From positions 1 to 32,959 of the forward strand of contig JAPLDP010000058.1 of NCBI GenBank assembly GCA_026391695.1: DNA of 32,959 bases. The letters run 5' to 3'. Of the stretch, positions 24,467 through 30,219 are shown one piece after another. The notes beneath the pieces are model-generated. The model was given only the letters and a program-made list of their open reading frames with translations. It did no database searches and had not been told where the DNA came from. The DNA comes from Bacteroidota bacterium (lineage in GTDB: Bacteria; Bacteroidota; Bacteroidia; Bacteroidales; JAGONC01). A program made the position numbers and the translations under genes. Positions within the stretch are counted from its first letter, which is position 1. Each line of letters starts with the position of its first letter.

Positions 24467-24523
24467 CGCACGATAACGGTAACCAGAGCAAGCCCATTTT
24501 CCAAATTCCGTTGCAGAGTATTT

Positions 24524-24604
24524 AATTAATCCCGACTTGCTTCGCAGTCGGGATTAATTCGACTTACAAATTTTACTGCACTTTGTTTGTAAAATTTGAG
24601 TCTC
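24524..24604 (-). repeat. Two-hairpin dispersed element, copy A (ndk leader)
   Basis: Hairpin 1 has a perfect 14-bp stem: AATTAATCCCGACT (24524-24537) pairs with AGTCGGGATTAATT (24546-24559). Hairpin 2 has a perfect 10-bp stem: CAAATTTTAC (24567-24576) pairs with GTAAAATTTG (24589-24598), extended by GACT/AGTC across a 2-nt bulge. In minus orientation it reads GAGACTCAA...TTGTAAGTCGAA...AATCCCGAC...GTCGG, the order also found at 29892-29957. It ends 26 bp before the ndk ATG. Confidence 0.75.
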
Positions 24605-24630
24605 ATTAAAAATCTTTAAAACCAACATTT

Positions 24631-25050
24631 ATGTCAGGAAAAATCACATTGACCACGATTAAACCTTTAGCTGTGCAGAAAAATCACACAGGTGCAATAT
24701 TAAAACAGATAAATGAAGCAGGATTCCGGGTTATAGCGATGAAATACCTCAAATTGACAACGGATCAGGCAAGGGAATTTTATGCCATTCACAGAGAAAG
24801 GCCATTCTTTAATGATTTAGTAATGTCAATGAGTTCAGGTCCCATAGTAGCTGCTATACTTGAAAAGGACAATGCTGTCGAAACATACAGGGAACTCATT
24901 GGTTCTACAGATCCTTTAAAAGCAGCACCAGGTACGATACGGAGTTTATATGGGATATCTATTGAAGCGAATGCAGTGCACGGTTCTGACAGTGACGAAA
25001 ATGCAGGGATTGAAAGTGATTTTTTCTTTTCAAAATTGGAACGGTACTGA
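24631..25050 (+). CDS. ndk: Nucleoside diphosphate kinase
   Basis: A 139-aa enzyme that exchanges the terminal phosphate between nucleoside triphosphates and diphosphates. Conserved features are the TIKP lysine near the N-terminus, '[20 protein letters not shown]', '[11 protein letters not shown]', '[14 protein letters not shown]', and the active-site phosphohistidine in [12 protein letters not shown] near residue 116. Length is the usual short bacterial form. The first motif reads TIKPLAV where most members have MIKPDAV or MIKPNAV, so a normally polar position carries Leu; the catalytic residues are intact. It converges with an XRE-type regulator gene with 5 bp between stops. Confidence 0.95.
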
Positions 25051-25856: not shown

Positions 25857-28800
25857 ATGGCGAAAAAACCTTTTTCTATCTTAATATCCATAGTGATAGT
25901 GGTATTTCAGACAACCGGATCGGAATGGATTAAGATCACAGCCGATTCTCCTTCGCCGGCTCGCGTGAAGCTCATCTCCTCTACTATTTCTTCTTCAGTC
26001 ATTAAATATTCGATCGATGGATTTTATTTAAACGAATACCAAGACAATCGCAATAATTCATATTGTGTACGCGTCGATAATGCAGTTCCCATTCTCATGG
26101 CCGGTTATCCGGATCTGGTAAAATTATCGGAATCCATTATAATTCCTGACCAGGGTGAAATGAAACTGAATATTGTTTCGGCCCATTTCACTGATTATAC
26201 CAATATGTCTATTGCTCCATCATATGGAGATATGCAAAGGAATGGGAGTCAAAATTATTATTCAGCAAAAAGTGATGCATATCGCACGGATGCTTTTTAC
26301 CCCAATATGCTGTCTGATATTAGCGAACCTTTTATCTTAAGAGATTTAAGAGGGCAGACTGTCACTATTTTCCCATTTCAATATAATCCCATCCAAAAAA
26401 TACTGCGTGTCTACACAGAAGTCATTGTGGAATTGGTTGCCGATAAAAGTGAAGGACGAAATCCTTTTGTCCGCAAATACGAAAATTCGGCATCAAATGG
26501 ATTTAAAGAAATATATAACCGCCATTTCCTAAACTATAGAATGACAGATAACAGAGATGATAGTCAAATGGAAACCACCCGCATGCTCATCATTTCATAT
26601 GGTCCTTTTATAGAAGCCTTGCAGCCTTTAATAGACTGGAAATTACAATGCGGTATTATCTGCGATGTTGTAGACGTCGCCCAAATTGGTGATGCAGAAG
26701 CAATCAAAAATTATGTCACAAACTACTATTACTCATATGGCCTCTCCTATTTGCTGCTTGTCGGTGATATTGAATACATTCCTTCTTTGAGCACTGAACT
26801 GGGTATTTCTGATAATTCCTATGGATATATAGCCGGCACAGATCATTACCCCGATATATTTGTCGGGCGCTTTTCTGCTTCAACGCTTAATCACGTGAGG
26901 ATTCAAGTCGAAAAATCTTTACGGTATGAAAAAAATGAGTTTGAAGCAAGGGATTGGTTATCAAAAAGTATTGGCATTGGATCCAATCAAGGTCCTGGTG
27001 ATGATAACGAAATGGATTATGAACATGTAAGGAATCTTCAGAATAAGTTATTAAGCAACGGTTACAGTTATAAGTATGAATTGTTTGATGGTAATCAGGG
27101 TGATTTTGATGCTGCAGGAAATCCTACCAGCAGGATGGTAAAGGAAGCCATCAATGAAGGTGCAAGTATATTATTGTATACCGGTGTTGGAGACTTTTCT
27201 TCATGGGGAACTTCAGAATTCAACGTTAATGATGTGTTCCAATTGAATAATGCAAATCGTTATCCATTTATCATCTCGGCCGGGTGTTATGGTGGCGCAT
27301 TCAATCATCCGTTATGTTTTGCCGAGGCATGGCTCCGGGCATCGGATAACGATATACCAACTGGAGCTGTAGCAGCATTTATGACGACCGGACAATTAGG
27401 CTGGTATCCCTCCATGCACGCCCAGGATGAAATGATATCCTATCTATTAAATGGGCATGACAATTCGGCTTTAATGACATTTGGAGGGATGACCATGAGT
27501 GGTTGTATGGCCATGAATGATAAATATGGGATAGCAGGTGGCAGACTCACAGATATATGGACAATATTTGGAGATCCTTCACTTATTTTACTATCGGGTA
27601 CCCCTAAAACTATCTATGCACAACATGAGGATGTGATATATTCTGATGCTGAAACATTTGAAATTAAATGTGATATTGATGGAGCACAAGCGGTATTGAC
27701 ATGCAATGATCAAATCGTGGGTGCTGGAAAAATTCTCGAAGGAGTAGCCCATATTAAGATTGCAAATGAATTGCAGTGTGATGAGGTCACTTTAACCATA
27801 ATAGCTAATAATTGTATACCTTATATTAAAAAGTTATCATTAGTATATTACCCATCCCGGATTAAAATATCCTCACCTGTCAACTGCCAGGAAATGGTTT
27901 CTCCTTATAAAACGCTGCAATGGTCAGCAGGTAATGGAAGTAAACCGCAATTTTACAAGATATATATCGGAACCGACAACCCTCCGACTAATTTACTTAA
28001 TGGACTGACATTGAGAGACACGTTTTATTTATATGATAAAACTTTTGAATACAACCGGAAATATTTCTGGCGTGTTGACGCTTATAATCAATATGGTTTT
28101 ATAAATGGGGATATCTGGCAATTCAAGATTACATCACCTCCTGATGAAGATTTTGAAGATGCAACACTTCCCCGGAATCTCTGGGGCTTTGAAGGCATTT
28201 ATGGATGGCAAATTGACAGCACGGTTCATTTTAATGGTTTGATGTCGTGCAAATCGGGGCAAATTGGTGCTAATGAGAGTTCGTCAATGCTTTTTTACTC
28301 AGAAAATACAATAGATGATTTTGTAAGTTTCTGGTTTAAGATTTCATCTGAATCAGGAAAGGATAGGTTCGAATTCCTTATTGATGGAAATATACAAGGA
28401 GAATGGTCAGGGGAAGTTTCATGGGTTAACTGCATATATTTTGTTCCAAAAGGGAAACATGTACTTGAGTGGAAATATGCAAAAGATGAAAGGGATGCCA
28501 AAGGTTCCGATGCTGTGTGGATTGATGATGTTTATCTGCCAATAAACGAAGAAATTTATGTTGATGCCGGGTGGGAAGCATTCTTCTGTGAAAAAGAGGT
28601 CATCAATTTGACCGGAGATGCCCGGAATTTCACATCTGTGAAATGGACAACCAATGGCACAGGTATTTTTACAGAACCTACAGCGCTTAATACAACTTAT
28701 ATTCCGTGTCTTTCTGATTACAATAATAAAAATCTATGTGTAACATTAACGGCTTATAATGAATATACGTTTACATCTGTAAATAATCAAATGAAAGTAA

Positions 28801-29327
28801 ATTTTACACCATATCCGATAGAGCTGAATAACATAAAGGACACGACCCTTTCAATAGGAGAAATTTTAAATATTGATGCTTTTTCCCCTGACATTCAATC
28901 CTATCTCTGGATGCCATCAGGATTCAGGGAAAGCAATTTAATAATTGATTCAAGGGAGTTTAAAGCCGGGACGCACACCATCACATTAAAAGCAATTGGT
29001 ACGAATGGTTGTTTATTCGAGAAATCAATGAATATCACTTTTTTTAATAATTCCGATAAAATGCGTACAGAGTGTATTCAATTGGAAATATTTCCCAATC
29101 CCAATGATGGGATATTTAATCTGAAAATTGATTCTGAGTTCCCGTTAAATGTCGGAATTATTATTTATGATATATACGGAAAGATAATTTATGAACAAAA
29201 AGGTATTTCTGTCATGGATATCTATTCAGAGAAGCTTGATCTGTCAAATGTTGAAAATGGCCTATATTTTATTCAAATAGATGGCGGTGCAAGTTATCAA
29301 ACGAAAAAACTGATTATTCAAAAATAA
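25857..29327 (+). CDS. Gingipain-like C25-family T9SS protein with catalytic His replaced by Val
   Basis: 1156 aa. A signal peptide (about 1-21) and a propeptide-like region lead to a C25 domain at about 240-590, recognisable from its similarity to RgpB: YTGVGDFSSWGTSEF, AGCYGGAF, MTFGGMTMSG, DIWTIFGDPSLIL. The nucleophile Cys is present (C477), but the catalytic His, 33 residues earlier in gingipains (GHGS), is Val444 (codon GTT). After it come an Ig-like C25 C-terminal domain (about 595-670), a fibronectin-like domain (670-760), a concanavalin/MAM-like domain (765-890), PKD-like domains (900-1060), and a T9SS type-A sorting domain (about 1075-1156: IFPNPNDGIFNL, IYDIYGKII, LENGLYFIQ-like end, KKLIIQK). 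It is expected at the cell surface or outside the cell. Proteolysis is doubtful; binding or scaffolding is possible. Confidence 0.88.
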   Translation: MAKKPFSILISIVIVVFQTTGSEWIKITADSPSPARVKLISSTISSSVIKYSIDGFYLNEYQDNRNNSYCVRVDNAVPILMAGYPDLVKLSESIIIPDQGEMKLNIVSAHFTDYTNMSIAPSYGDMQRNGSQNYYSAKSDAYRTDAFYPNMLSDISEPFILRDLRGQTVTIFPFQYNPIQKILRVYTEVIVELVADKSEGRNPFVRKYENSASNGFKEIYNRHFLNYRMTDNRDDSQMETTRMLIISYGPFIEALQPLIDWKLQCGIICDVVDVAQIGDAEAIKNYVTNYYYSYGLSYLLLVGDIEYIPSLSTELGISDNSYGYIAGTDHYPDIFVGRFSASTLNHVRIQVEKSLRYEKNEFEARDWLSKSIGIGSNQGPGDDNEMDYEHVRNLQNKLLSNGYSYKYELFDGNQGDFDAAGNPTSRMVKEAINEGASILLYTGVGDFSSWGTSEFNVNDVFQLNNANRYPFIISAGCYGGAFNHPLCFAEAWLRASDNDIPTGAVAAFMTTGQLGWYPSMHAQDEMISYLLNGHDNSALMTFGGMTMSGCMAMNDKYGIAGGRLTDIWTIFGDPSLILLSGTPKTIYAQHEDVIYSDAETFEIKCDIDGAQAVLTCNDQIVGAGKILEGVAHIKIANELQCDEVTLTIIANNCIPYIKKLSLVYYPSRIKISSPVNCQEMVSPYKTLQWSAGNGSKPQFYKIYIGTDNPPTNLLNGLTLRDTFYLYDKTFEYNRKYFWRVDAYNQYGFINGDIWQFKITSPPDEDFEDATLPRNLWGFEGIYGWQIDSTVHFNGLMSCKSGQIGANESSSMLFYSENTIDDFVSFWFKISSESGKDRFEFLIDGNIQGEWSGEVSWVNCIYFVPKGKHVLEWKYAKDERDAKGSDAVWIDDVYLPINEEIYVDAGWEAFFCEKEVINLTGDARNFTSVKWTTNGTGIFTEPTALNTTYIPCLSDYNNKNLCVTLTAYNEYTFTSVNNQMKVNFTPYPIELNNIKDTTLSIGEILNIDAFSPDIQSYLWMPSGFRESNLIIDSREFKAGTHTITLKAIGTNGCLFEKSMNITFFNNSDKMRTECIQLEIFPNPNDGIFNLKIDSEFPLNVGIIIYDIYGKIIYEQKGISVMDIYSEKLDLSNVENGLYFIQIDGGASYQTKKLIIQK

Positions 29328-29729: not shown

Positions 29730-29891
29730 TAGTGTTCGTTGAAATTTAACTGACTGTAAATAATATAGTCGGATGCAATTTTAACACAATTGATTCTCTT
29801 CACCCAGGGAATCCCCTTTCCTATGTATTTTTCAATGAAAAATTGATGTGTTGATGTATTGTTTGGAGTAATGTATAAATGTTTTATTTGT

Positions 29892-30052
29892 GAGACTCAA
29901 TTTTTGAAAGCCGAAGGCGCACCAAAAATTGTAAGTCGAACAATCCCGACAAAGTCGGAAGGTATAATACCACGCCCTTTGGGGCAGAATAAGGGGCCGG
30001 GGCGCCGCTGGAGCGGCATGTCGCAAGCTCAACTTGCCCCGGGATTCATACC
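29892..30052 (+). repeat. Two-hairpin dispersed element, copy B, fused to a GC-rich branched palindrome
   Basis: The left part repeats the copy A order: GAGACTCAATTTTTG (29892-29906) pairs with CAAAAATTGTAAGTC (29923-29937; 9-bp stem plus GACT/AGTC across a bulge), then AATCCCGACAAAGTCGG (29942-29957). The right part (29961-30052) begins with GGTATAATACC and contains an outer stem CCGGGG (29997-30002)/CCCCGG (30037-30042) enclosing two hairpins, GCCGC/GCGGC (30004-30017) and CAAG/CTTG (30024-30036), like a three-way junction. It ends ATTCATACC, complementary to the GGTAT start. It is much richer in GC than its surroundings. Confidence 0.72.
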
Positions 30053-30219
30053 TGTGATTTATATAATTCATAATCAGATAAATAAAAAAATAACTGCATA
30101 ATTTTTAAACAATATTATATAGAGCTTGTATTTATGATTAATCAAGTGAAATGGTCCCAAAAAATTTGACAGTAACTTAAGGCTATAAGCGATGTATAAA
30201 CCTTAAAAAATATACAAAA

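What the first reader, a model, noticed from the sequence alone, without database searches (positions are those of the whole stretch)
24524..24604. Two-hairpin dispersed element with compensatory stem changes, in the ndk leader
Copy A here (minus orientation) and copy B at 29892-29957 (plus) share the order GAGACTCAA - stem - loop - stem - TTGTAAGTCGAA - AATCCCGAC - loop - GTCGG. The AT stem differs between copies (CAAATTTTAC/GTAAAATTTG versus CAATTTTTG/CAAAAATTG) yet pairs perfectly in both, and both keep the same 2-nt TA bulge. Changes that preserve pairing imply selection on, or copying of, a folded structure. Copy A would lie in the ndk 5' leader, so it may also influence that gene.
Basis: seen in the sequence. 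Interest (0 to 1): 0.66.

Follow-up and report, generated by a model that had tools for sequence, protein, structure and literature searches.

The report
Folded mobile DNA repeat crossing phyla
The two matching hairpin sequences are copies of a small mobile DNA element that has no genes of its own, is scattered through this bacterium and through unrelated environmental bacteria, keeps its folded shape while its letters change, and can land in gene leaders and even inside protein-coding genes.

Summary
In detail: copy A (24556-24606, minus) and copy B (29890-29942, plus) share a bulged hairpin and a second hairpin. They belong to a dispersed family with 30 places in this genome, matches in 6 of 59 relatives, and copies in Bacteroidota, Ignavibacteriae and, at up to about 150 or more per genome, Smithella/Syntrophaceae. 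No Rfam match. Pairing is kept through changes on both sides (165 cells against 47 shuffled). The full unit is longer than described: 85-208 nt, GTGA-hairpin-hairpin-terminal stem-GTGATT. In-frame insertions in trmFO and fdhE have empty counterparts: the element enters behind TTATT (or CTATT) without a clear target duplication. Copy A sits between a conserved promoter-like motif and the ndk start; 12 other ndk loci lack it. Best reading: a non-autonomous single-stranded-DNA mini-transposon, REP/PATE-like in working, Rickettsia-palindrome-like in entering genes. The mobilising enzyme is not shown: 4 of 35 Y1 loci against 17 of 233 ordinary ORFs have a module within 500 nt, though one RAYT subfamily has modules beside all three members seen. 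An effect on ndk is untested.

The parts
24556..24606 (-). Copy A, hairpin 1: outer GACT/AGTC stem, 10-bp A+T stem, 2-nt TA bulge, then GAA
   Evidence: R1 79.9 bits, E 1.1e-17 over the window; read directly
24524..24559 (-). Copy A, hairpin 2 (AATTAATCCCGAC...GTCGGGATTAATT)
   Evidence: read directly; folds
24484..24523 (-). Copy A, decayed remnant of the 3' hairpins; no GTGATT right end seen, so probably an immobile relic (inference)
   Evidence: comparison with better-kept copies L011 and L013
24459..24469 (+). Promoter-like TATTTTTGCGC of ndk, also present in four family relatives
   Evidence: that TAnnTTTG is the Bacteroidota -7 consensus is recalled
24631..25050 (+). ndk, nucleoside diphosphate kinase
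   Evidence: Pfam NDK E 4.8e-50
29890..30059 (+). Copy B, whole element GTGAGACT...CCTGTGATT (170 nt); preceded by TTATT at 29884-29888 plus one T
   Evidence: copies 93% identical over the 161-nt query on contigs C85 and C41, 95% over 111 nt on C22
29890..29942 (+). Copy B, hairpin 1
   Evidence: R1 69.7 bits, E 3.8e-15
29946..29958 (+). Copy B, hairpin 2 (CCGAC AAA GTCGG)
29961..30052 (+). Copy B, terminal stem GGTAT...ATACC holding nested hairpins
   Evidence: replaced by a short hairpin in the 85-90-nt copies

Best explanation
A family of non-autonomous miniature mobile elements that move as folded single-stranded DNA. The minimal unit is GTGA - bulged hairpin - AGTYGAACAA - small hairpin - terminal hairpin (GGGTAC..GTACCC) - GTGATT, 85-90 nt; longer copies hold extra hairpins inside the terminal stem. 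Shown: dispersal, conserved fold with compensatory changes, boundaries at two insertion sites, a strong preference for TTATT just 5' of the element, presence in distantly related bacteria, in-frame insertion in genes, position of copy A in the ndk leader. Inferred: a Y1 (HUH) transposase of the IS200/IS605-RAYT type acting in trans cuts behind the left TTATT and the right GTGATT, most likely on the lagging-strand template. In the window, copy A is a decayed relic that lengthens the ndk leader, and B is a nearly complete copy.
For: 30 places in the genome; 1 to at least 149 per genome in 33 carrier handles. Covariation: 165 cells with both sides changed against 47.3 shuffled and at most 46 slid; with anchors that leave out the inner stem, 30 of 67 distinct arm pairs are perfect against 2.6 shuffled, maximum 8 in 1000; in contigs sampled as contigs, 10 of 15 perfect against 3.8 shuffled, maximum 8. 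Empty sites: trmFO, insertion in 3 genomes and none in 13; fdhE, insertion in 1 and none in 8; insert lengths 90, 99, 120 and 153 nt, all in frame. TTATT ends 0 or 1 nt before the element in 84 of 193 copies against 0-2 at eight other offsets. Hairpin strand on the G-rich strand 84:43, p 3.5e-4; intercept t 2.8 after allowing for gene direction. Single-stranded DNA fold of the 90-nt unit z -4.6.
Against: No autonomous copy found in 1.16 Mb of fetched, partly overlapping loci. One carrier with 57 copies (G454) shows no Y1 gene in two searches; another (G457, 86 copies, 1.7 Mb) has only short fragments. Y1 loci are not clearly nearer to elements than ordinary ORFs (4 of 35 against 17 of 233 within 500 nt). 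None of the 5 Y1 genes of the window's genome has an element nearby. 109 of 193 copies do not have TTATT at the two offsets; the three trmFO copies have TTATT, CTATT and CTGTT in front, and of 11 empty trmFO sites 5 have TTATT. ATT is shared by the left flank and the right end, so a 3-nt target duplication by another enzyme cannot be excluded. The strand bias is modest.
Confidence: 0.66

Rival explanations
1. A REP/RAYT system in the strict sense: a resident REP-associated transposase flanked by these elements spreads them.
For: The 234-aa RAYT subfamily of G460 (NHVHFI, YVENNPVRAG; NCBIfam REP_Tyr_transpos 75.1 bits, just under its cut-off of 80) has modules 51, 137 and 138 nt away in all three members seen, one of them a 60-residue fragment.
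Against: 4-20% of ordinary ORFs in four carrier genomes also lie within 500 nt of a module; the subfamily was picked after two cases were seen; members at 70% identity or more were found in 3 of 31 genomes searched, not in the window's genome. No GTAG/GTGG tag as a rule.
Confidence: 0.2
2. A DDE-type MITE moved by a common insertion sequence.
For: Short, non-coding, dispersed; ATT at both edges could be a 3-nt duplication.
Against: No terminal inverted repeats: GTGAGACT at one end, CCCGTGATT at the other; the same ATT at both edges at two sites rather than a varying duplication; a fold conserved by compensation.
Confidence: 0.08
3. A structured RNA (cis-regulator or small RNA) whose copies spread by duplication; copy A regulates ndk.
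For: Strong RNA fold (z -3.7), covariation, copy A in the ndk leader.
Against: No element in 12 other ndk loci; all four orientations to neighbouring genes occur (30/22/15/13 of 80 placed); in-frame insertions in genes; sharp insertion boundaries.
Confidence: 0.06

Closest known systems
REP/REPIN elements with RAYT (TnpA-REP)
   Same: Short, dispersed, mostly extragenic palindromes, probably mobilised in trans as single-stranded DNA; a stem bulge is required for activity of E. coli REP (PMC8266576, passages).
   Different: RTGA instead of a GTAG/GTGG tag in most copies; several hairpins in a fixed order; preference for TTATT in front; no resident RAYT shown to be flanked by copies as a rule.
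IS200/IS605 ends-only derivatives (PATE)
   Same: No inverted repeats, insertion 3' of a preferred short sequence, hairpin near each end, no clear target duplication (IS200/IS605 features from PMC7290912, passages).
   Different: No autonomous IS with the same ends found; the two end hairpins differ in sequence; high copy number in some hosts and a span across phyla.
Rickettsia palindromic elements (RPE)
   Same: Insert in frame in unrelated protein genes and add a recurrent peptide (PMC10969869, passages).
   Different: Different hosts; sequence relationship not tested.
CGTC-tagged REPs of PMC3733652
   Same: Palindromic, intragenic copies, no dedicated transposase, reported also in Bacteroidetes and Chlorobi (PMC3733652, passages).
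   Different: 8-9 bp stems with 4-5-nt loops and a CGTC tag; the present unit has a 14-bp bulged hairpin and further hairpins and is 85-208 nt.

Membership tests
REP (GTAG or CGTC superfamily) | GTAG/GTGG or CGTC tetranucleotide at the foot of the palindrome | tested here: not met
   Four letters before the GACT stem are ATGA or GTGA in 14 of 18 rows of A2; the other four read GTTA, AGTA, CTGA and GTAA, and in the AGTA copy (L005) GTAG can be read across the foot. A3 and A4 were chosen by this motif and do not count.
REP (GTAG or CGTC superfamily) | Dispersed palindromic copies | tested here: met
REPtron | RAYT gene flanked by the repeats | tested here: inconclusive
   0 of 5 in the window's genome; three members of one RAYT subfamily positive, Y1 loci as a whole near the baseline
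IS200/IS605 derivative (PATE) | Insertion 3' of a fixed tetra- or pentanucleotide, no target duplication | tested here: inconclusive
   Two empty sites fit and TTATT is strongly preferred, but it is not fixed in all copies and the shared ATT leaves a 3-nt duplication possible
IS200/IS605 derivative (PATE) | Hairpin near each end | tested here: met
   hairpins at nt 5-46 and 69-84 of the 90-nt unit
IS200/IS605 derivative (PATE) | Autonomous element with the same ends and a tnpA | tested here: inconclusive
   None in 1.16 Mb of fetched loci, ends up to 4 kb apart; carrier genomes were not read whole
Rickettsia palindromic elements | In-frame insertion in protein genes | tested here: met
   trmFO, fdhE against empty sites; open frames through the element in a metallophosphoesterase and a phosphopantetheinyl transferase, without empty-site comparison
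Rickettsia palindromic elements | Sequence kinship to an RPE family | not tested
   No RPE sequence was compared
MITE of a DDE transposase | Terminal inverted repeats | tested here: not met
   Ends read
Rfam RNA family | Match at the gathering score | tested here: not met
ndk leader cis-regulator | Kept in ndk loci of relatives | tested here: not met
   Absent from 12 of 12 other ndk loci at E below 0.3; one weak match at E 0.35

The most novel reading that the evidence does not exclude
A previously undescribed superfamily of multi-hairpin single-stranded-DNA mini-transposons, shared by Bacteroidota and Syntrophaceae, with its own TTATT target preference and modular hairpins that nest in one another, which moves by a trans-acting enzyme not yet identified and adds peptides in frame to conserved enzymes.
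Probability: 0.4. Interest if true: 0.74.

Novelty: new variant of a known kind. Interest (0 to 1): 0.6.

Why it matters
It gives a dispersed, strongly structured element with mapped filled and empty sites, which makes a long-standing question testable: how REP-like and RPE-like repeats without a dedicated transposase spread, and how they enter protein genes without breaking them. It also shows one such family in widely separated phyla, which suggests horizontal spread (inference; many carriers are metagenome bins). For the window, it explains an unusually long ndk leader.

Tried and rejected
Rfam at gathering and at relaxed thresholds: only chance matches. Companion gene: clustering 1360 ORFs of 80 loci (of 114 fetched) gave no common neighbour; the largest cluster, ABC ATPases, is in 7 loci, two clusters of 4 loci are frames of the element itself, the others reach 3 loci at most. 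Y1 genes: a simple pattern found 0 of 29 loci with an element; the covariance models then found elements that the pattern missed, at L259, at L377, L371 and L378 and others, so alone is misleading. Of the Y1 matches only a part was fetched; one search covers 71 loci, some overlapping (for example L377 and L391), and leaves out L245, L256-L266 and L387, most of which were fetched again in other form (L265 and L266 were not). The 4 of 35 is my count from the lists and 98 of distinct Y1 places in deltaproteobacterial genomes. Autonomous copy: left and right ends paired up to 4 kb apart, one case of 282 nt. Model R2 of the full unit was built but not used, since the nested part varies too much. 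Mobile carriers: no match in plasmids or phages for one Syntrophaceae copy (L148), none in viral contigs for one exact pattern. Literature: nine searches gave no description of this family in the listings seen (one search listed 10 of 619, one search listed 10 of 27); supplements, subscription papers and preprints were not searched.

Considered and dropped: intrinsic terminator (no T run behind the palindromes of copy A in the ndk direction, by eye) and a regulatory leader of ndk (see rivals).

Full report
Observation. Each begins GA-GACT, forms a bulged hairpin in which GACT pairs with AGTC outside an A+T stem and the 2-nt TA lies unpaired on the 3' side, and is followed by a second hairpin. 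Both fold better than dinucleotide shuffles (z -3.7 and -3.0). A scan of the window with model R1, filters off, gives only these two below E 0.01; both had gone into the model.

The family in this genome. TTGTAAGTCGAA occurs 14 times exactly in the 3.63-Mb genome, 0 times read backwards. The 161-nt B query has 93% copies on two other contigs, a 95% copy over 111 nt on a third, and partial ones elsewhere. From 18 copies I aligned hairpin 1 (A2) and built R1; it finds 33 rows at E <= 1: 30 places at E <= 1e-4 (18 of them the model's own), two antisense overlaps, and one at E 0.02 (150 of 3255 candidates scored). Three stem subtypes occur. The unit is longer than reported: B is 170 nt to CCTGTGATT; A has only a decayed tail. 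Optional hairpins occur between hairpins 1 and 2 and inside the terminal stem; the 46 full units picked by pattern are 85-208 nt.

Spread. R1 matches 6 of 59 relatives at E <= 0.01, four of them (G002, G030, G043, G055) at E below 1e-6 and two weakly (G020, G054) (its tally of 7 of 60 counts the window's own genome), and 5 of 394 other genomes drawn from the class (15 candidates scored per genome, so counts are low). In 33 carrier handles, chosen because they carry it (G106 and G465 give the same figures and places and seem to be one genome), counts run from 1 to 149; five have 144-149 and are limited by the 150 candidates scored. As G106 is in the window's class and G465 is a record titled Bacteroidetes, the window belongs to Bacteroidota. 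No match in plasmids, phages or viral contigs.

Fold under constraint. On A2, 96.2% of cells pair and 20 cells are changed on both sides against 6.7 shuffled; but the number of pairs with such a change (4 against 2.9, 71 of 500 shuffles as high) and of pair types (7 against 6.4) do not stand out. Next I anchored on outer motifs only: of 153 distinct sequences 109 pair at all nine inner positions and 146 at seven or more; of 67 distinct arm combinations 30 are perfect against a shuffled mean of 2.6 and maximum of 8 in 1000; the closing pair is G-C 46, A-T 19, A-C 2. Much of that DNA had been fetched with R1 or with a pattern that fixes part of both arms, so this is not free of selection. In contigs taken as contigs (L331-L363, L367-L370) 10 of 15 are perfect and 15 of 15 pair at seven or more, against shuffled means of 3.8 (maximum 8) and 9.4 (maximum 13). 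On 55 diverse rows (A4), 93.1% of cells pair and 165 cells are changed on both sides against 47.3 shuffled and at most 46 when slid; 11 of 14 pairs have such a change (shuffled 9.1; 33 of 500 as high). Relatedness inflates the shuffles, and a structure taken from the sequences favours itself over the slid versions.

Boundaries and target. In trmFO (NCBIfam TrmFO, 652.6 bits) three genomes (G457, G460, G468) carry the element in frame; the other 13 of 16 with a TrmFO match do not (17 genomes searched). DNA of 14 of these 16 was aligned (two were not picked up by my script): filled, for G457, TCTTATT[GTGAGACTC...CCCGTGATT]TATATTTTT; empty, for L270, TCTTATTTATATTTTT. The inserts are 90, 99 and 120 nt with TTATT, CTATT and CTGTT in front. 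Of 11 empty sites aligned, 5 have TTATT, 1 CTATT, 2 TTATC, 1 CTATC and 2 none of these. In fdhE (Pfam FdhE_central; below the cut-off of NCBIfam FdhE) G468 carries an in-frame 153-nt element behind TTATT, and 8 other genomes do not (16 searched; 7 of the 8 aligned as DNA, where the neighbouring bases have diverged and TTATT is not seen). Across 193 flanks TTATT ends 0 or 1 nt before [AG]TGARACT in 84, and in 0-2 at eight other offsets; the looser TTWWT ends 0-2 nt before in 104, against 12 and 9 at two control distances. ATT at both edges leaves a 3-nt ambiguity.

In genes. Of 115 copies in GTDB loci 4 lie within long ORFs by a strict rule. Further stretches, chosen for long open frames, show frames running through copies in a metallophosphoesterase and a phosphopantetheinyl transferase, with peptides like CETQISKTKCIEICKSN.

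Copy A and ndk. TATTTTTGCGC stands 22, 25, 25 and 52 nt before candidate ndk starts in four family relatives and 161 nt before it here, with the element between. ndk was found in 13 of 16 genomes searched; R1 finds no element in the 12 others (one weak match, E 0.35). So A is most likely a derived insertion in the leader, reading against ndk. Genes beside copies show no fixed orientation: 30/22/15/13 of 80 GTDB copies placed (27 at locus edges and 6 inside ORFs set aside) and 6/5/8/4 of 23 in this genome (2 set aside).

Mobiliser. Y1_Tnp is found in 31 of 33 carrier handles; not in G454 (57 copies) or G457 (86 copies, 1.7 Mb), though G457 has short RAYT fragments. A Y1 protein of 234 aa in G460 (NCBIfam REP_Tyr_transpos 75.1 bits, cut-off 80), a 72% identical one in G476 and a 60-residue fragment in G464 have modules 51, 137 and 138 nt away; L371 (322 aa, G468) has modules on both sides. 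But 17 of 233 ordinary ORFs of 180-360 aa (4-20% by genome) have a module within 500 nt, against 4 of 35 Y1 places, and the window's genome has no match to the 234-aa protein. No autonomous copy was seen. The hairpin strand lies on the G-rich strand in 84 of 127 copies from 98 loci (p 3.5e-4), and the regression intercept after allowing for gene direction is 0.011, t 2.8. This fits single-stranded DNA on the lagging-strand template, as for IS200/IS605 (PMC6006769, abstract in the listing), but is modest.

Known kinds. IS200/IS605 elements lack inverted repeats and target duplications, insert 3' of a tetra- or pentanucleotide and need a hairpin at each end (PMC7290912, passages). REPs carry a GTAG-type tag and, in E. 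coli, need the stem bulge (PMC8266576, passages; PMC3733652, passages). Bacteroidetes RAYT subclass 2.6 is flanked by 'atypical secondary structures' (PMC6006769, sections 13 and 25); whether these resemble the present element could not be checked, as figures are not held. RPEs insert in frame in genes (PMC10969869, passages). The element works like these but meets no single definition fully, so I call it a new variant of a known kind.

Noticed in passing
window 25857-29327 (+): 1156-aa C25 (gingipain-type) peptidase with propeptide and type IX secretion tail (Pfam); copy B lies about 560 nt downstream.
   Followed up: no
L047 (G000:C34:40287-43631): A Y1 transposase match with an internal stop, set among several copies of a different short palindrome of the CGTCCCTAACGGGACG type: perhaps a second REP-like family in this genome.
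   Followed up: no
L377 / L391 (G460:C66) and L259 / L392 (G476:C57): 234-aa RAYT genes with clusters of the element on one or both sides, candidate REPtrons.
   Followed up: partly
L137, L159, L181: Elements with a second GAGAC unit nested inside them, so the hairpins seem to be targets or building blocks for each other.
   Followed up: no
L001, L008, L013: Copies that start directly behind terminator-like hairpins with T runs (by eye), perhaps because these supply the T-rich target.
   Followed up: no
L083, L088, L091 (G055): A divergent subfamily with copies close to contig ends, which hints at longer repeats that broke the assembly.
   Followed up: no
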